Shown here piece by piece: positions 4,839 to 16,907 of a stretch of DNA of 64,000 nucleotides. Source of the DNA: Tubulanus polymorphus (Eukaryota > Nemertea > Palaeonemertea > Tubulaniformes > Tubulanidae); contig NC_134035.1 of NCBI RefSeq assembly GCF_964204645.1, positions 3,114,001 to 3,178,000 of the forward strand, given 5' to 3'. The notes under the pieces are model-generated. The model was not told where the DNA came from. It did no database searches and saw nothing but the letters and a program-made list of their open reading frames with translations. Every line of letters begins with the position of its first letter. Position 1 is the stretch's first letter. The position numbers and the translations under genes are program-made.

Positions 4839-7579
4839 AGGGCTACATCAAACTAAAAATGATCGAAACGAATTTTAGATGCGAGTACATACACTTTTAT
4901 GAATGACCCCTTAATTGACACCTCGTTATTTTGTTTTTGATTTGGATAAAGTTACCTGTTGTCTTGTAGGTATTAGTCAGTCAGTATGACGCATAATCAG
5001 TTGGTTTCACCTCTGGCTACAGTTCCACAGTTGTGTTGTTGTTTTGTTTGGACATTTCTCTCCGAGTTGAAGTACTAAAATTGGAAATGAGATCTAATAT
5101 TGACGCCGTTTGTAGATATCGAAATCAAAAAAACTGTCGAACTGTCCGAGAGTGTTACATCTATACCGTTTAGAATGGCTTAACCTTGTGAGATTTTGAT
5201 ATATCACTCTAACCCTATTTGAAATGTATGCGGGGCTGAGCCAGAATGTTACTTAACTGTAACTTTTCTGATGACAGGGCAATATAGATCATGTAAATAA
5301 TATCCCCAAAGCCGAGTACTGAAGGCTCAATACAAAAAAAAAATGGGTAAAGGTTCCTGCTTCAGAAAATGTTCACTATCTGAATCGTATTTGTTGCACT
5401 AATTAGGTCTTTAGGGCTTTGCTGCTTTGTAAATTGAGTTGAGAATACTTTATTTTTTGAAAGGCGCTATAAAATCTATTGTCCCTGTTGTCCAATTTAT
5501 ACCGCAAATACGGTCTGGCGTCTGTCTTGTAGATATGAATGCAATTATTGGATAAAGAATGGAAGAAATGTGCATGAAAATGAAAATAAAGAATGTTTGA
5601 AATGCTGAACACTAAAACTAGATACTGTTACCCTATTGAATACGAAAAAGAATTTCGACAAGGATTTCGATGTCACTAGCTTATCCATAAGTCCTCTCTC
5701 AAGTACCATCAGGTTAAATATTCCAGCTCTTATTGCATGTTTGACTACGATTTGAATTGATATTCGACCTGCGACTCGAGTGTATGCGAATTATGAAAAC
5801 AGTTTTAATAGTCAGGGTAAATGGGTGCTTTTCGCGCACTTTATAATATGTGTATTTTATTGTGTATATATATTTTTGAGATGCTTTTGCATTTTGCATT
5901 TTCCTTGTGTATAAGTTCTATCTCGGAGTACTCCAAAGTTCTCTATTGATGCCTTGACAGTTTTTGTGTACGCGCTGTCTTACATAAGCCGTATTTTTGT
6001 AAAAGTCTGATCCCGGTTCTTGTAATCGGCTATGTGTTTCTCTGCATGTTTTGTATGATAGTCTCTAAAAGAGTCAGTTCGTTTTGGAGTCCATGGTTTG
6101 TATGATGGACTCTAAAAATATTCGTTTTTGGAGTTCATGGTTGAATGCTTGCAAGTCGTTGGTTTTTTCTTAGTATATATGTTAGTGTATATGGTTCAAT
6201 TGCATTGATATCCTTTGAAAAAAAAGTGAATCTGAATTGTAAAAGATATTTTTCAGGTCCTGTGTATAGAAAGACATAGAATACGTAGAAACTTGTTGAA
6301 AGGTGATGAAAATACTGTAGTCAATATGAGTAGTTATCGTTTGCCTTTGATTATCGCATGTCCCGAACGAAACTTAAAACATGGTTCTCACAGTACAGGG
6401 AAATTGGGAAAAACTTGGGAATTTTGAAGTAATATTCCTAGTTAGGAAATATTTGGGAATTTGAGTAATTTTCCTCTAATCAGGCAAATATTTTGGGAAA
6501 TTAATTTACATTTCATGTATTGCATTTGCCGAGGGGAACTTTCTTCAGCAATTTCTTTTGAAAATTACCTTTAACCGGTAACCACTAAAATGTTGACTTA
6601 TAGTATGGCGATATCTGTTCATGTTTACGAAGGCCCAATTTTCTATTTGGGTAAATTGAAAAATCACCCATGAAATACTTGGGAAATTTTCATTCATGTA
6701 ACGGTGGGAACCATGTTGAATTTTGCCCAACTCTTCTTAAGTTTGAAGATTTATCAGGCGTAGTTTGTACGTATTGTAGGCATGTCGGTCAGCATCCTTT
6801 CGTCGCCAGTACAGCGACAAGTAATAAGTAGCTAGGCTTCGTTGACGACAGTAGTACACTCACTTACATTCGTTCGTGAACCAAATACATGTATTATATA
6901 GCAATACTTCTTGTAGTAAAACTGATCTAATTCATTCATTAGTAACAGGTAACCGTTTCGCGGCATTAAGGGTATGAACTGGATGTCCCATTTTAATAGG
7001 ACGATTTTTATTAAGAGTACCGGTAAAAAGCTATGTATATTTTTATGATATAATGTATGTAAATGTATGGATAATAAATTTCGTGAAAATATTCGAACTT
7101 CTTGATGAGTTTTTTTTAGGTCTTTTAGTTTTGAGGATTCATTTGACAGGAAAGACAGTAGTTCTAAGCTCATGCCCTTTGGGACCTTTTGCAGAACGAT
7201 TCCCATTCATGAAGTAAAAAAAAAAGTCTAAAGAATGAAATCATTTTTTGTTGCAACGATTGGTTAAACATTTGTCAATACAAAAGTGGAACTCTATCTA
7301 GATATATCTCTATTGCACGCTCGTATATGTGTATATACGTATGTCGTAGTGAACGGATATAACAGGTCACATATTCAACCAGTAAAGTCTATACCATTAA
7401 TACATGTAGTAAGTACGGTACATGAACTACGGGTTTAGTTTTAACGTAAATGAGTTGAATCCTATACGTTATCGATGCAACGATCCTAAATCTGGATGTA
7501 TACAAGTTTCATTCGAGCAAAAACTGATACCGTTAGTGAGTAAAATACTTCGCTTTTGTTTTCACGTATAGGTAGAATT

Positions 7580-9213
7580 ATGAGCTTTTACGATCGAATG
7601 ATGAACTCGCGGTTTGTGCTGCACACACTGTTAGGGATCGGAGTCGGTGTGCTGATATACAAGTCGAGGAAGGACAGAGCGAGAAGGAATGCTATTCAGC
7701 AGAAACTCAACTCAATACCGCCTGGTATGTGTCCAAAAGTCTTACATCTATCATATTCAAGCTTTTTCGCATTAACTGATTATTTTTATCATTTATCAAC
7801 TAATTTGCAGGTTTAAGTTATAGACAATGCGACGTAATGGAAAGCTCGCTGGACGTCGCTCACCGAGTCGGTGGTCTAATCGACACTAATGTCCTGTTTA
7901 TCGAATCAGATCGAGAAATCGGTAAAGAATTGGTGCAGAAATCCGTCGATTTGTTGTGGGATCGTTACATCATGTTGAGGTTGAAAGTCTTGACGGTGGA
8001 CACTGGCGCGCGGATACTGCCACGATTTCTGGTAGAAATGGAACGATCACCTGTGAAATGTCGAGTCGAATTACGAGACGGGAATGACTGGAAACAGGTG
8101 TTTGAGTCGGAGATTCTACGACCGCTTGACTGCGACGACGGTCCACTGTGGAGAGTGTGCATGCTGAATGTGGACGAGTTCAAATACGCGTTTGTGTTCA
8201 CGTTCCATCACGCGATCGTAGATGGCGCTGCGATCATGCAGATTTTAACCGAATTCCAACGAAACATAGATGTGTTGTTGCGAGGAGTTGAACCTCAGAT
8301 GCCAGACGACTACAGCGATCACAGCCAAGTCATAACACCTAACCTGTCCGAAATGTTGAAGAACGACCCACGGTATGCTTGGTCTATTTCTGATGTGACT
8401 ACCCCGTTACGATTAAGCAAAACAATGTCCACTCCTGACACCGGTTTGGCCGGTGAACTGAGCCGCACACTTGGACCGAAAGGGTCAATCGAATATAAAA
8501 CCAGTATCGAAGAGTTTGAACTTTCCGAAGTACAATCTTCAGCGTTGAGAAAGAAGTGTAAAGAAATGAAATGTACAGTTCATGGCGCTTGTACAGCGGC
8601 CGCTGCTTTGGCTTTGAGAAAATTGGCACAATTAAATGATATAGAAGATGAGTATCTTAGAACATTTCCAACCAGTTTAAACGTCAGTATGAGGAGATAT
8701 GTTAATGCTGCTATGAACGGTCGTTTGGGTAATTTCATTTCAATCATTGGTCTTCCTGTTATGTTGGTGAAGCCCGGCAGCCAAACTCCAGTTGAATTCT
8801 GGGAGCTAGCTCGCGAGTCTACCGAACAGGTTCATCTAGGACTGAACGACGGATTACAATTTCTCTTCACGAAGATGTTAAAGCTTATGCGTTATTTCGG
8901 CTCCGATCGTGGATTCTGTGATATGTGGTCGGGCGGCGGTGACAGTCCTCGTCATAAAATGTTCAATATATCCAATCGTGGTCTGTTCAAGAATGTTCCT
9001 GGTGAGCGTGTTACACGGATAACTGGGGTGTACTGGGCCACTGCCGAACACAGCTGCCCTATGGGCAGATTTACACATAACGTCGTCTCTTTAGACGATA
9101 AGATGTACTGGTCGGTTACTAATTACCTGAACGTAACGCGTCGAGAATCAGCGAGACAATACGCCGATCTGATCAAATCGATTTTAGTCGAAAATATAAT
9201 TCGTGTAGAATGA
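7580..9213 (+). CDS. Membrane-anchored HHxxxDG acyltransferase-like protein, array copy A
   Basis: Two exons, 7580-7724 and 7811-9213 (515 aa). Exon 1 encodes a hydrophobic anchor (about residues 12-27, FVLHTLLGIGVGVLIY) followed by a basic stretch (KSRKDRARR). Exon 2 encodes a domain of the chloramphenicol-acetyltransferase-like superfamily (condensation, wax ester synthase and alcohol acetyltransferase enzymes). The active-site motif is HHAIVDG (H181, H182, D186, G187). The later GRLGNFISIIGLPV and FNISNRGLF segments resemble the LGN..LP and SN.G motifs of wax synthase and alcohol acetyltransferase families. Members move an acyl group from a thioester to an alcohol or amine; the substrate cannot be read here. 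The start was chosen by identity with copies B and C. Copies B and C follow head to tail. Confidence 0.88.
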
Positions 9214-10220
9214 GAGAGATGCTATTAGTTCGGTTCACGAACACGAGTGTTAATTTGAATACGAAGGCTTCGTGCAATCCATTCCCTAGACTGGGAACCC
9301 GCCATTTGAATAATGTATAAATGTATAGCCAATCAGAGATCGTTTGTGATGAGACAATGTGTATATAAATGTAATGGTAAATATCTATGATAAGATCCTC
9401 AAATTCATGATAAATCACAAGTAGTTGTGTAACGATTTCTAGAACAGGGTTTCGCGTACGAACTTCCCGTCAACCGGATTATGAAAACTATGAATATGCA
9501 TGACAAGTAATGTCCAGCAAACGTTGAGTTTTGGAACTATTAAAGTAATGCTTTTTTCAGACAATATTCGATATAAAAAGCCCTTTTTGGGCTATTGGCC
9601 ATTTTGGCCTTTTTTCGTTGAATTAAAACTTTTAACTTCGGGATGTCAAGCTGTACAACGGGGTATGGGAGTCAGGACAGTCAACCGTGGTTCATGGCGC
9701 TGACGGTCGTTTCTTTACACCTGATGTTATATTATATATGTAAAAATATAAATAAAAAATTTCGGGTGAATATTCGAACTTTTATATGAGTTTTTAATTT
9801 TTTCTGTTGAGGATTCTGTGACGGACAGGGAGGCCCATTAATCTAAGTTCATGCCCATTGAGACCCTTCGCAGATCGATTTCCATCTATGATGTGAAAAA
9901 CGTCTAAAGAAAGTAATAAACTTTTGTTGCGAATCAACACAACGAATGTTTGAAAATGTAAAAGTAGAACTCCAGCTAAAAATAGCTCTATTGTGCGCTC
10001 ACGTATATAAAAATAGTGAGCGGGTAAAATAGGTCAAAATATTCAACCTATACCAGCAATACATGTAGTGGGTTCATGAACGATGTGGGTTTAGTTTAAG
10101 AGTTAAAGTATATTTGTGATCAAGGCAACGATCCTAAATCTGGATGTATACAAGTTTCATTCGAGCAAAAACTGGGACCTTTGTGAGTAAAATACTTCGT
10201 TTTCAAGAATCGGTAGCATT
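9214..10220. other. Spacer between acyltransferase copies A and B
   Basis: This holds the 3' UTR of copy A and the upstream region of copy B. From about 9740 to 10220 it is recognisably similar to 7050-7579 (shared ATATTCGAACTT, TCTAAATCTGGATGTATAC and TTCATTCGAGCAAAAACTG), so the duplicated unit includes about 500 bp of upstream DNA. A G+C-poor hairpin (AAAAAGCCC..GGGC, then TGGCCATTTTGGCC) lies at 9575-9610. Confidence 0.6.
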
Positions 10221-11849
10221 ATGAGTCTTTACGATCGTGTGATGAACTCGCGGTTTGTGCTGCACACACTGTTAGGGATCGGAGTCGGTGTGCTGATATA
10301 TAAGTCGAGGAAGGACAGAGCGAGAAGGAATGCCATTCAGCAAAAACTCAACTCTATACCGCCTGGTATGTATCTCAAGTCTTATATCTATCGTATTCAA
10401 GCTTTGTCGCAATAACTGATTAATTTTATCAAACTGTTTGCAGGTTTGAGTTACAGACAATGCGACGTTATGGAAAGCTGGCTGGACGTCGCTCACCGAG
10501 TGGGAGGTCTAATCGACACCAATGTCCTGTTTATCGAATCAGATCGAGAAATCAGTAAAGAATTGGTGCAGAAATCCGTCGACTTGTTGTGGAATCGTTA
10601 CATCATGTTGAGGTTAAAAGTCCTAGAGGTGGACACTGGCGCGCGGATACTGCCACGATTTCTGGTAGAAATGGAACGATCACCTGTGAAATGTCGAGTC
10701 GAATTACGAGACGGGAATGACTGGAAACAGGTGTTTGAGTCGGAGATTCTACGACCGCTTGACTGCGACGACGGTCCACTGTGGAGAGTGTGCATGCTGA
10801 ATGTGGACGAGTACAAGTACGCGTTTGTCTTCACGTTCCATCACGCGATCGTAGATGGCGCTGCGATCATGCAGATTTTAACCGAATTCCAACGAAACAT
10901 AGATGAGTTGTTGCGAGGAGTTGAACCTCAGGTGCCAGACGACTACAGCGATCACAGCCACGTCATAACACCTAACCTGTCCGAAATGTTGAAGGACGAC
11001 CCACGTTATGCTTGGTCTATTTCTGACATAGCTACCCCGTTACAATTAAGTAAAGTAATGTCCAGCACTGACACCGGTTTGGCCGGTGAACTGAGCCGCA
11101 CACTTGGACCGAAAGGGTTAATCGAATATAAAACCAGTATCGAAGAGTTTGAACTTTCCGAAGTAGAATCTTCAGCGTTGAGGAAGAGATGTAAAGAAAT
11201 GAAATGTACAGTTCATGGCGCTTGTACAGCGGCCGCTGCTTTGGCCTTGAGGAAATTGGCGCGATTAAACGGGATAGAAAATAAATATCTTAAAACTTTT
11301 CCAACCAGTTTTAACGTCAGTATGAGGAGATATGTTAATGATGTCGATATGAAAGGGCGCTTAGGTAATTTCATTTCACTAATCGCTCTTCCGCTTGTAT
11401 TAGTGAAGCCCGGCAGCCAAACTCCAGTCGAATTCTGGGAGCTAGCTCGCGAGTCTACCGAAAATGTTCATCTAAGACTGAACAACGGATTACAGTTCGT
11501 CTTCACAAAGACTTTAAAGCTTAGAGGTAATATCGGCTCCGATCGTGGATACCGTGATATGTGGTCGGGCGGCGGTGACAGTCCTCGACATAAATTGTTC
11601 AATATATCCAATCGTGGTCTGTTCAAGACTGTAACTCCGGATGAGCGAGTTACACGTATAACGGGGGTGTACTGGGCCACTGCCGAACACAACAGCGCTA
11701 TGGGCAGATTCGCCCATAACGTCGTCTCTTTAGACGATAAGATGTACTGGTCGGTTACTTATTACCTTAACGTCACGCGTCGGGAATCTGCGAGACAATA
11801 CGCCGATCTGATCAAATCGATTTTAATCGAAAATATATCTGAAGACTGA
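10221..11849 (+). CDS. Membrane-anchored HHxxxDG acyltransferase-like protein, array copy B
   Basis: Two exons, 10221-10365 and 10444-11849 (516 aa). It has the same architecture as copy A: anchor exon, phase-1 intron of 78 bp, then the catalytic exon with HHAIVDG intact. Exon 1 and the first two-thirds of exon 2 are almost identical to copies A and C. The C-terminal third differs more: GNIGSDRGYRDMW, an extra residue in VTPDERVTR, and VDMKGRLGN instead of AAMNGRLGN. I see no stop or frameshift, so it should be functional. It may have a different substrate preference from A and C, but that is inference only. Confidence 0.87.
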
Positions 11850-11884
11850 GAGAGATACAAGATCGGGTCCGGGACCAAATTACT

Positions 11885-11947
11885 TTAATAATAATTAATA
11901 ATAATTTAATAATAATTTAATAATAATAATAATAATAGTAATTAATA
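11885..11947. repeat. (AAT)n microsatellite
   Basis: A run of AAT and TAAT units directly after the copy B stop codon. Confidence 0.85.
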
Positions 11948-12486
11948 ACTTTACTGTATTCCGGATCCAGAAAGGTATTCTGTTCAGGGCACCTTTCTTT
12001 GGCCACTGGCCAATTAACAGACACCCGTGTGGCATCATTAAGGCTCCGAACACTAAGGTGTTGGAGAATATATGTAATCAGGTGATGAAGATGCCGCACG
12101 TGTGACTGATTCTTAGGACAGGGTTTTCGTACGATCTTCATCTCACCAAGTGACTTATAAAACTGTGGACACTATACAAGCGTTCCAGAACTATATCGGG
12201 CATATAAGGCTGTTGGGACCGTTTAAATTATCATTTTTCAGCCAAGATTCAAAAGGAACAGCCATTTCGGACTGTTTGCTAGGCTCTTCTTCGTTAGATT
12301 ACAACATCTAACATCATTATCCAGAGGAACGTATGGAAAGGAAGACGGTCAACCGGATGGTTCCTGGATTCCTATCATACCATTATGCACCATATAGATT
12401 AATGAACATTAAACGGGCCTCGATTATTGCTCGATTATATGCAGTGACTGCTAATGTACATGAATAAAAAGATGTTAATTAATAAA

Positions 12487-12518
12487 ACTTGAACTTGAAC
12501 TTGAACTTGAACTTGAAT
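12487..12518. repeat. (GAACTT)n microsatellite
   Basis: Five head-to-tail ACTTGA hexamers follow two AATAAA motifs (12464, 12481). A hexamer tail after AATAAA can mark the 3' end of a retroelement insertion, but no coding remnant is seen next to it. Confidence 0.7.
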
Positions 12519-12680
12519 TAACATAAGAATGGTTCAAAAAGTGTTGTCAAAACAAACATGGAACTCCCGACACATTCTCGCCGAGATAGCAGTAAATGAC
12601 GAGGTCAAATACGACGAGTAATTCACATGTAATAATCTACCTTCAAATACGAACACCATACATTAACTTGACACATAGGT

Positions 12681-14295
12681 ATGGGTTTGTACGATCGTGT
12701 GATGAACTCGCGGTTTGTGCTGCACACACTGTTAGGGATCGGAGTCGGGGTGCTGATATACAAGTCGAGGAAGGACAGAGCGAGAAGGAATGCCATTCAA
12801 CAAAAACTCAACTCAATATCTCCTGGTATGTGTCTTATATCTATCGTATTCAAGCTTAGTCGCATTAACTGAGTATTTTATCGAACTGTTTGCAGGTTTA
12901 AGTTATAGACAATGCGACGTAATGGAAAGCTCGCTGGACGTCGCTCACCGAGTCGGTGGTCTAATCGACACCAATGTCCTGTTTATCGAATCAGATCGAG
13001 AAATCGGTAAAGAATTGGTGCAGAAATCCGTCGATTTGTTGTGGGATCGTTACATCATGTTGAGGTTAAAAGTCCTAGAGGTGGACACTGGCGCGCGGAT
13101 ACTGCCACGATTTCTGGTAGAAATGGAGCGATCGCCTGTGAAATGTCGAGTCGAATTACGAGACGGTAATGACTGGAAACAGGTGTTTGAGTCGGAGATT
13201 CTACGACCGCTTGACTGCGACGACGGTCCACTGTGGAGAGTGTGCATGCTGAATGTGGACGAGTTCAAGTACGCGTTTGTGTTCACGTTCCATCACGTGA
13301 TCGTAGATGGCGCTTCGATCATGCAGATTTTAACCGAATTCCAACGAAACATAGATGAGTTATTGCGAAAAACTGAACCTCAGGTGCCAGACGACTGCAG
13401 CGATCACAGCCAAGTCATAACACCTAACCTGTCCGAAATGTTGAAGGACGACCCACGTTATGCGTGGTCTATTTCAGACATTGCCCTATTTCGATTTAGC
13501 AAAGCAATGTCCACTCCTGACACCGGTTTTGCCGGCGAACTGAGCCGCACACTTGGACCGAAAGGGTCAATCGAATATAAAACCAGTATCGAAGAGTTTG
13601 AACTTTCCGAAGTAGAATCTTTAACGTTGAGGAAGAAGTGTAAAGAAATGAAATGTACAGTTCATGGCGCTTGTACAGCGGCCGCTGCTTTGGCCTTGAG
13701 GAAATTAGCGCAATTAAACGCTATAGAAGATAAATATCTTACAACATTTCCAACCAGTTTAAACGTCAGTATGAGGAGATATGTGAATGCTGCTATGAGC
13801 GGTCTTTTGGGTGATTTTGTTTCAGTCTTTGCTCTGCCACTTCTGTTAGTGAAGCCCGGCAGCCGAACTCCAGTCGAATTCTGGGAGCTAGCTCGCGAGT
13901 CTACCGAACAGGTTCATCTAAGACTGAACGACGGATTACAGTTTGTCTTCATGAAAATGGCAAAGCTTAAGCGTTATTTCGGATCCGATGGTGCATCTCG
14001 TGAAACGTGGTCCGGCGGCGGTGACCGCCCTCGTTATAACATTTTCAACATATCCAATCGTGGACTGTTCAAGACTGTCCCTGGTGAGCGTGTTACGCGG
14101 ATAACTGGGATATACTGTGCAACTGCTGTTCACGGCAATAGCAACATGGCGAGATTTTCCCATAACGTCGTCTCTTTAGACGATAAGATGTACTGGTCGG
14201 TGAATACTTACCTGAACGTCACGCGTCGAGAATCGGCGAGACAATACGCCGATCTGATCAAATCGATTTTAATCGAAAATATATCTGTTGAATGA
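12681..14295 (+). CDS. Membrane-anchored HHxxxDG acyltransferase-like protein, array copy C
   Basis: Two exons, 12681-12825 and 12896-14295 (514 aa). The anchor exon starts MGLYDRVMNSRFVLH and matches A and B. The active-site motif is HHVIVDG, with Ala to Val inside the variable positions, and the catalytic His and Asp are kept. This copy is the most diverged in the C-terminal part: GLLGDFVSVFALPLLL replaces the GRLGNFIS segment, and it reads SDGASRETW and YCATAVHGNSNMARF. An AATAAA at 14517-14522 gives a good poly(A) signal about 220 bp after the stop. A longer frame that starts at 12790 reads intron 1 and is not the protein start. Confidence 0.87.
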
Positions 14296-15320: not shown

Positions 15321-16907
15321 ATGGATGGTAAGTGTTTTTAAAATAGAATTTATGATAGACCCGCATTCCATCGGCATTCCGATTTTATCACGTTTTTACA
15401 ATGAAAATGTACACAGAAACGATGAGTACTCGGTACCATAGAATTCATTTCCAGCTAAAGATGAAACATCTTCCGCGGTAGCGGATGACGCGCCAACAAA
15501 AAGTGATGACGTGGCACTGTCGACAGCAAACGCCCTACAGCCGACAGCGCCCTACGACCAGACGCCAGCGGACGACTTTCTGTCGGTGCTACGACCTCCA
15601 GCCGCCGTCGCGCCAGTAGCTGGTGAAAAACCACCACCACAGCAGCCACAGCAGCAGCCGATCTTCGCTAGGACGAACATCAGTTTCCCGATGTCGAGAC
15701 CTGTAGCAGAAGCGGCACAGCCACCGTCGTATTTCGAAGCCGTAAACGCCGTAGAACCGGGTCGACCGTCGATGACGCCGCATCGCGGGGCTGAATTCGC
15801 GTCCTGGTTGAACGCGGAATGTCCCGGCGACACGCGAGTGAATCCCGACACGAATCGACTAGTAGACGTAAGGAGAATAGATCGTCGTAACTCAGAAATA
15901 CTTGTAAAATGCGTTATAAATTCGAGCTGATAAGCGTGTATCATATCTCATGCATAAAATAAACATTGTTGGCGTAATTGAAGTAATAAAGAGTCATCTA
16001 CAACATCCGTGTTCGTAACAGAAAAATACAAACGTTTTACTATAAGCTCTATTAACATTATTTAGGCCAGACATTCATTTCATGTTACTAACATTGGAAT
16101 TATTTCCCCATTTCAGAACGACTTTGAGAAACCACCCTCGTACGGATGGCTGGCCGGGGTGACGGCTTTATTTTGTTTTTTCGCCGCTATCGCAGCGTGG
16201 CATTATTCGTCGCAGGTATGGTATAGTACAGGTTGGACGATAGTTCAAACTAAATCAAAGAACTAAGATGTTTATAGCCATTAGCGCGGACATGAAAGGA
16301 ACTGTCGGTAAAAAAGAGAGTTGATAATCAGCGCAATGGAACCTTTCCTAATAATGTAAAATTTTCCCATTTATGTCAAATGCGACGACGACTCGAAAGC
16401 GGTTTAGGCGGTCTACGTCCGAATCGACCGAGTGTTGGTCTACTCCCGAGCAATCATTTCAATGATGATTGCTCGTAGCTAACTCAATGCATACAAATGC
16501 ATACAAATTATGTATCAGAAATCTGAAAGTATGCGACGTTTTGAACTGTCTCTATAGCGGACGCATCGTCAGATGTGAGAGAGTCCTTGTATTCTGATAT
16601 TAACTTTTGATTGATAAATTTCATTTCTAATCTTTTAAATTTGTATATAGTTGGTTTCGATCTTTCAATCACTTCTCCACGTCTGAGAGTGTAGGGGGTG
16701 GGGGTGGGGGCTATTCTTCTACTGTACCGCTGATAAACTTCTATATTCATACTTCAGGTTGGGCCCCTGTGGTCTCAGGGACGATACGAAGAAGCTCGCC
16801 GATATTCGAACAAAACCAAGACGATAGCACTAATCGGAATATTCATTGGCTGTGTGATAATCACTGTATTGGGCGTCTACTACGGAATACTGTTCAATGG
16901 GTTTTAG
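15321..16907 (+). CDS. CD225/dispanin-family membrane protein with PPxY motifs
   Basis: Four coding exons: 15321-15327, 15455-15867, 16117-16215, 16758-16907; 222 aa. The N-terminal 140 residues are Pro/Gln/Ala rich and presumably cytoplasmic, with PPSY at 92-95; a second PPSY lies at 146-149. PPxY motifs commonly bind WW domains of Nedd4-type ligases. The C-terminus has two hydrophobic segments (about 150-168 and 196-217) joined by a loop with GPLWSQGRYEEARRYSNK, which fits the G..A...S pattern of the CD225 domain in IFITM, PRRT and TMEM91-like dispanins. Family members are small membrane proteins in vesicle fusion or trafficking; the exact role here is unknown. The start ATG sits on a 7-nt coding exon that joins in frame. 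Exon 2 reads through its donor to a stop at 15930 followed by AATAAA signals, so a short isoform is possible. Confidence 0.84.
15958..15990 (+). promoter_or_regulatory. Two AATAAA motifs in dispanin intron 2
   Basis: AATAAA occurs at 15958-15963 and 15985-15990, 30-60 bases after the stop (15928-15930) that is reached if exon 2 is not spliced at 15867. This could produce a soluble protein of about 161 residues without the CD225 membrane part. AT-rich introns contain this motif by chance, so it is only a candidate. Confidence 0.35.

What the first reader, a model, noticed from the sequence alone, without database searches (positions are those of the whole stretch)
7580..14295. Three-gene array of membrane-anchored HHxxxDG acyltransferases in an animal genome
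Seen: three head-to-tail genes with identical two-exon structure. An N-terminal hydrophobic anchor is alone on exon 1, the HHxxxDG motif is intact in all three, and no copy is broken. Known: HHxxxDG enzymes of this superfamily include NRPS condensation domains, WS/DGAT wax synthases and alcohol acetyltransferases, many best known from microbes and plants. Inference: a lineage-specific, membrane-bound acyl-ester or amide pathway that has expanded and may have diversified in substrate. I do not recognise a named animal family with this exact layout.
Basis: partly seen in the sequence, partly recalled or inferred. Interest (0 to 1): 0.7.

Follow-up and report, generated by a model that had tools for sequence, protein, structure and literature searches.

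The report
Animal family of membrane-anchored acyltransferases
Three neighbouring, intact genes in an animal genome encode membrane-tethered enzymes that probably join an acyl group to an alcohol or amine, and they belong to an uncharacterised 16-gene family whose closest relatives of known structure are microbial.

Summary
Three head-to-tail, intact two-exon genes (515, 516 and 514 aa) lie at 7580-9213, 10221-11849 and 12681-14295. Each has HHxxxDG and a short hydrophobic segment alone on exon 1. They score above the curated Pfam cut-offs for Condensation and AATase. The predicted fold is CAT-like along its whole length, and the best solved match is stand-alone AzeD (Z 36.5), ahead of PapA5 and NRPS condensation domains (28.6). 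All share one phase-1 intron position, and 15 of 16 have an anchor-like first exon. The second His and the Asp-Gly are invariant in all 16, but the first His is not. Bacterial stand-alone enzymes match the family profile end to end, NRPS domains mainly over the N-terminal half. A tree separates the animal family (99/97) from NRPS domains (100/100). Most likely these are membrane-anchored acyltransferases forming esters or amides of a lipophilic acceptor. Substrate, donor and species are unknown. No paper describing the family was found in the library, and other animals could not be searched. This is a new variant of a known enzyme kind, of moderate interest.

The parts
7580..7724 (+). Gene A exon 1: start codon and hydrophobic anchor segment followed by KSRKDRARR
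7811..9213 (+). Gene A exon 2: CAT-fold acyltransferase domain, HHAIVDG, stop included
10221..10365 (+). Gene B exon 1: anchor
10444..11849 (+). Gene B exon 2: acyltransferase domain, HHAIVDG, stop included
12681..12825 (+). Gene C exon 1: anchor
12896..14295 (+). Gene C exon 2: acyltransferase domain, HHVIVDG, stop included
7725..7810 (+). Phase-1 intron of gene A (86 bp); the equivalents in B are 10366-10443 (78 bp) and in C 12826-12895 (70 bp)
   Evidence: the same position and phase in the paralogues

Best explanation
The three genes are recent tandem copies within a 16-gene animal family of single-domain, N-terminally membrane-anchored acyltransferases with the chloramphenicol-acetyltransferase-like (CAT/condensation) fold, of the stand-alone AzeD/PapA type. 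Shown: intact two-exon genes, predicted fold, family-wide conservation of the catalytic His and Asp-Gly, exon layout, paralogue number, and separation from NRPS condensation domains. Inferred: a membrane-tethered enzyme (by charge distribution the catalytic domain faces the cytosol, at the ER or mitochondrial outer membrane) in which the second His of HHxxxDG acts as general base on a hydroxyl or amine of a lipophilic acceptor. That acceptor attacks an acyl thioester, most likely acyl-CoA, to give an ester or amide. The copies share the catalytic half and differ more in the C-terminal half, so they may differ in acceptor or donor.
For: Pfam Condensation and AATase over their cut-offs for all three; 14 and 13 of the 16 members match at E<=0.01. 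AlphaFold2 model pLDDT 80, pTM 0.85, with full-length matches to AzeD (Z 36.5, 421 aligned, 3.5 A), PapA5 (28.6), CDA condensation domain (28.6), Tri3 acetyltransferase (26.5), MEL acyltransferase (25.0) and WS/DGAT (24.7). A model from the other half of the family (pLDDT 85.4, pTM 0.88) gives the same top match (AzeD 37.6, next 29.4). Invariant in all 16: Arg51, Leu55, Arg56, Pro111, Trp113, His133, Asp137, Gly138, Phe148, Trp330, Asn388, Gly390, Asp428 of the exon-2 protein. A hydrophobic exon 1 plus phase-1 Gly-splitting junction was found in 15 of 16 genes. Stand-alone bacterial proteins match the family profile end to end (96.9 and 87.1 bits); NRPS domains match mainly the N-terminal part (<=64 bits). 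Tree: animal family 99/97, NRPS domains 100/100.
Against: No activity, localisation or expression data. The window copies' anchor is borderline in hydrophobicity. The first His is lost in most paralogues, so activity across the family is assumed. A fold does not give a function: the best match is titled a dehydratase in its PDB entry, and condensation-fold proteins include epimerases and cyclases. The tree has long branches and no eukaryotic outgroup.
Confidence: 0.72

Rival explanations
1. Lipid-storage enzymes: wax-ester or diacylglycerol synthases of the WS/DGAT type, doing bulk neutral-lipid esterification.
For: Same fold (6chj Z 24.7); a weak WS_DGAT_cat match in two members; a membrane anchor suits lipid substrates.
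Against: The WS_DGAT_cat match is below its cut-off in every window copy. The genome has one separate gene over that cut-off that does not appear among the family's matches. Structural matches to AzeD and PapA5 are higher.
Confidence: 0.12
2. Free-standing condensation enzymes that work with a carrier protein (peptidyl or acyl carrier) in a nonribosomal or polyketide-type pathway of the animal, forming an amide, or acting as a dehydratase as the title of the AzeD entry says.
For: Condensation is the best-scoring Pfam family; AzeD and the free-standing SgcC5 are structural neighbours; one bacterial relative is fused to a stretch that reads like a carrier domain (sequence).
Against: All 11 Condensation matches in the genome are family members, so no canonical C-domain NRPS was seen; no biosynthetic partner was recognised among the 20 neighbouring ORFs scanned; the membrane anchor is unlike soluble NRPS systems.
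Confidence: 0.12
3. Catalytically dead or repurposed binding proteins kept for a non-enzymatic role.
For: The first His is replaced in most paralogues.
Against: The second His and the Asp-Gly are invariant in all 16, and the window copies keep the full motif under purifying selection.
Confidence: 0.04

Closest known systems
AzeD (PDB 8s6l, Pseudomonas aeruginosa; molecule name phthiocerol/phthiodiolone dimycocerosyl transferase, entry titled AzeD dehydratase)
   Same: Single stand-alone CAT-fold domain, matched over its whole length; best in sequence profile (1.6e-12) and in structure (Z 36.5 and 37.6).
   Different: Only 16-17% identity; bacterial, sits in a peptide pathway, and no N-terminal anchor was seen in the aligned chain.
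PapA5-type acyltransferases
   Same: Fold (1q9j Z 28.6), stand-alone architecture, partial PapA_C match in 8 of 16 members.
   Different: PapA_C is below the curated cut-off in the window copies; 10-12% identity; anchor present here.
Yeast-type alcohol acetyltransferase (Pfam AATase)
   Same: Above the Pfam cut-off in all three copies; membrane association and ester chemistry are known for yeast Atf1 (from memory).
   Different: Matches only part of the profile; the anchor type differs; no acceptor is known.
NRPS condensation domain
   Same: Fold and HHxxxDG; over the Pfam cut-off.
   Different: Not part of a multidomain synthetase; NRPS domains form a separate clade (100/100); matched mainly over the N-terminal half.
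WS/DGAT wax synthase
   Same: Fold and motif.
   Different: Below the curated cut-off; a distinct WS/DGAT gene exists in the same genome.

Membership tests
CAT-like (condensation/AATase) acyltransferase superfamily | CAT-like two-subdomain fold over the whole protein | tested here: met
   and for a paralogue (predicted models)
CAT-like (condensation/AATase) acyltransferase superfamily | HxxxD catalytic motif (HHxxxDG) | tested here: met
   HHAIVDG/HHVIVDG in all three; His133, Asp137, Gly138 invariant in 16 of 16
CAT-like (condensation/AATase) acyltransferase superfamily | acyl transfer activity | not testable with these tools
   needs an assay
NRPS condensation domain | domain of a multidomain C-A-T synthetase | tested here: not met
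   single-domain genes; all Condensation matches in the genome are of this family
NRPS condensation domain | groups with NRPS C domains in a tree | tested here: not met
   (NRPS set from one bacterial class plus two further loci, long branches)
WS/DGAT | Pfam WS_DGAT_cat above the curated cut-off | tested here: not met
   17.5, 18.6 and 14.8 bits against 23.6
PapA/AzeD stand-alone acyltransferases | PapA_C above the curated cut-off | tested here: not met
   25.7, 17.7 and 18.4 bits against 30
PapA/AzeD stand-alone acyltransferases | stand-alone single domain with full-length sequence and structure match | tested here: met
Alcohol acetyltransferase (AATase) | Pfam AATase above the curated cut-off | tested here: met
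   34.6, 36.9 and 36.6 bits against 22
Alcohol acetyltransferase (AATase) | acetyl-CoA:alcohol transfer | not testable with these tools
   needs an assay

The most novel reading that the evidence does not exclude
An animal-encoded specialised-metabolite route: a 16-member membrane-bound enzyme family, with recent tandem bursts, that makes a diverse set of lipid-like esters or amides (defence, signalling or surface chemistry) without any NRPS or symbiont.
Probability: 0.3. Interest if true: 0.7.

Novelty: new variant of a known kind. Interest (0 to 1): 0.42.

Why it matters
The acyltransferases of this fold that were found here with solved structures are microbial enzymes of lipid, toxin or peptide pathways. 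A large, intact, anchored family in an animal would be a ready set of candidate genes for esters or amides made by the animal itself, and the near-identical tandem copies offer a natural experiment in substrate change.

Tried and rejected
Search for close bacterial relatives with conserved peptide patterns: the first scan found none; the second found only a WS/DGAT and an NRPS sharing the motif region. A scan of viral contigs found none. Identification of the animal: no COX1, no Rfam hit in the window, no 18S core (the Rfam 18S search failed); absence of Chitin_bind_4 (no positive control) and TTAGGG arrays suggest a non-arthropod animal but do not name it. Paper searches for the family in animals found none. 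The sponge acyltransferase OroG (PMC12833800) was considered as a precedent for animal amide formation, but the section read does not state its fold. Gene conversion among the copies: weak clustering of shared sites (p = 0.015 for runs, 0.07 for longest run), not claimed.

Full report
What is there. Three head-to-tail genes on the + strand fill 7580-14295. Each has a 145-nt first exon, a short phase-1 intron that splits a Gly codon, and one long second exon. The proteins are 515, 516 and 514 residues and 87-89% identical. All carry HHxxxDG. Pairwise dN/dS is about 0.3-0.36. Silent divergence of about 0.18-0.23 marks the copies as fairly young but not newborn (inference). A and B share about 63% of the 300 bp upstream; the sequence upstream of C is unrelated, so its expression may differ (inference).

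What family. Pfam places all three above the curated cut-offs for Condensation and AATase; PapA_C and WS_DGAT_cat match below theirs. AlphaFold2 on an alignment of the genome's own paralogues gives a confident model (pLDDT 80, pTM 0.85). Against solved structures it aligns from end to end with stand-alone AzeD (Z 36.5), then with PapA5 and NRPS condensation domains (28.6), Tri3 (26.5), a mannosylerythritol-lipid acyltransferase (25.0) and WS/DGAT (24.7). A second model, for a paralogue from the other half of the family, again puts AzeD first by a wide margin. A profile search of PDB sequences also ranks AzeD first.

The wider family. The genome (267.8 Mb, 77 contigs) holds 16 genes of this type with an open exon 2: three here on C11, four on C5 (three in tandem), two each on C2, C3 and C10, and one each on C1, C4 and C6. 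There is one decayed copy at C3:24.32 Mb and two small remnants. The intron position and phase are shared. A hydrophobic first exon ending in a phase-1 Gly-splitting donor was found for 12 of the 13 others; with the three here that makes 15 of 16. So the anchor-plus-catalytic-exon layout is ancestral to the family, not special to the array. The second His, Asp and Gly of the motif are invariant in all 16; the first His is kept in the three copies here and in the C1 and C4 genes only.

Relation to microbial enzymes. In 274 genomes from the class of a Lysobacter genome, the best matches are stand-alone proteins, which match the family profile almost end to end (96.9 and 87.1 bits), while NRPS domains match mainly over the N-terminal half with at most 64 bits. 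A tree of 37 sequences groups the animal proteins (99/97) apart from the NRPS domains (100/100); the exact place of the stand-alone bacterial sequences is unresolved because of long branches. A separate WS/DGAT gene exists in the genome. No canonical NRPS condensation domain was seen: all 11 Condensation matches are family members.

How it most likely works. The exon-1 segment is a short hydrophobic stretch followed by KSRKDRARR; positive charge on its C-terminal side favours a cytosolic catalytic domain (inference from the positive-inside rule). In this superfamily the second His of HHxxxDG is the general base and the Asp is structural (established knowledge). The invariant Asn and Gly of the SN-x-G motif, the Trp of the FW motif and the Asp of the DG/DD motif near the C-terminus are the likely channel and active-site residues (inference). 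I expect acyl-CoA as donor and a lipophilic alcohol or amine as acceptor. Amino-acid change among the copies is concentrated after codon 240 (70 aa-changing and 41 silent variable codons against 18 and 24 before; p = 0.03), which would fit changed substrate preference but is weak evidence, and recombination among copies could contribute.

Context. Neighbouring ORFs include an inner-membrane-protease-like signal peptidase, a SAM/Pointed domain, a tectonic-like domain and a weak CD225-like protein; no biosynthetic partner was recognised among the 20 ORFs scanned. The SAM_PNT and tectonic-like genes and TTAGGG arrays fit an animal.

Novelty. No paper found in the held library describes such an animal family. 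I recall that uncharacterised condensation or AATase proteins are listed for several invertebrates, but this was not tested. The survey of NRPSs in animals (PMC10531068) concerns multidomain enzymes. I file this as a new variant of a known enzyme kind.

Noticed in passing
G000 C3:24324117-24326234 (-), and C3:23997174-23997362, 24003855-24003977: A decayed copy of the family with many stops, and two remnants, near the two intact C3 genes: birth-and-death turnover.
   Followed up: partly
L036 (G000 C1:27870884-27871324, -): A separate WS/DGAT-like gene with a 616-aa open frame, a hydrophobic stretch ahead of the catalytic part and an HPSLTDG motif.
   Followed up: partly
window 9921-10220 against 7280-7579 and 12381-12680: Upstream regions of A and B are about 63% alike; that of C is unrelated, so C may have a different promoter.
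   Followed up: no
just before the start codons at window 7580, 10221, 12681: An AG lies within a few bases of each start codon (e.g. CACATAG-GTATG in C), as expected for a 5' UTR intron or spliced-leader acceptor.
   Followed up: no
G000 C4:25817-64566, C7:21563989-21571725: Several separate TTAGGG arrays spread over kilobases rather than one terminal block.
   Followed up: no
window 15442-16266 (+): Pro-rich PPSY exon and a small membrane exon with a weak, sub-threshold CD225 (IFITM-like) match.
   Followed up: no
L069 (bacterial), ORF from 1174: A full-length bacterial relative that reads as fused to a carrier-like domain at its C-terminus.
   Followed up: no
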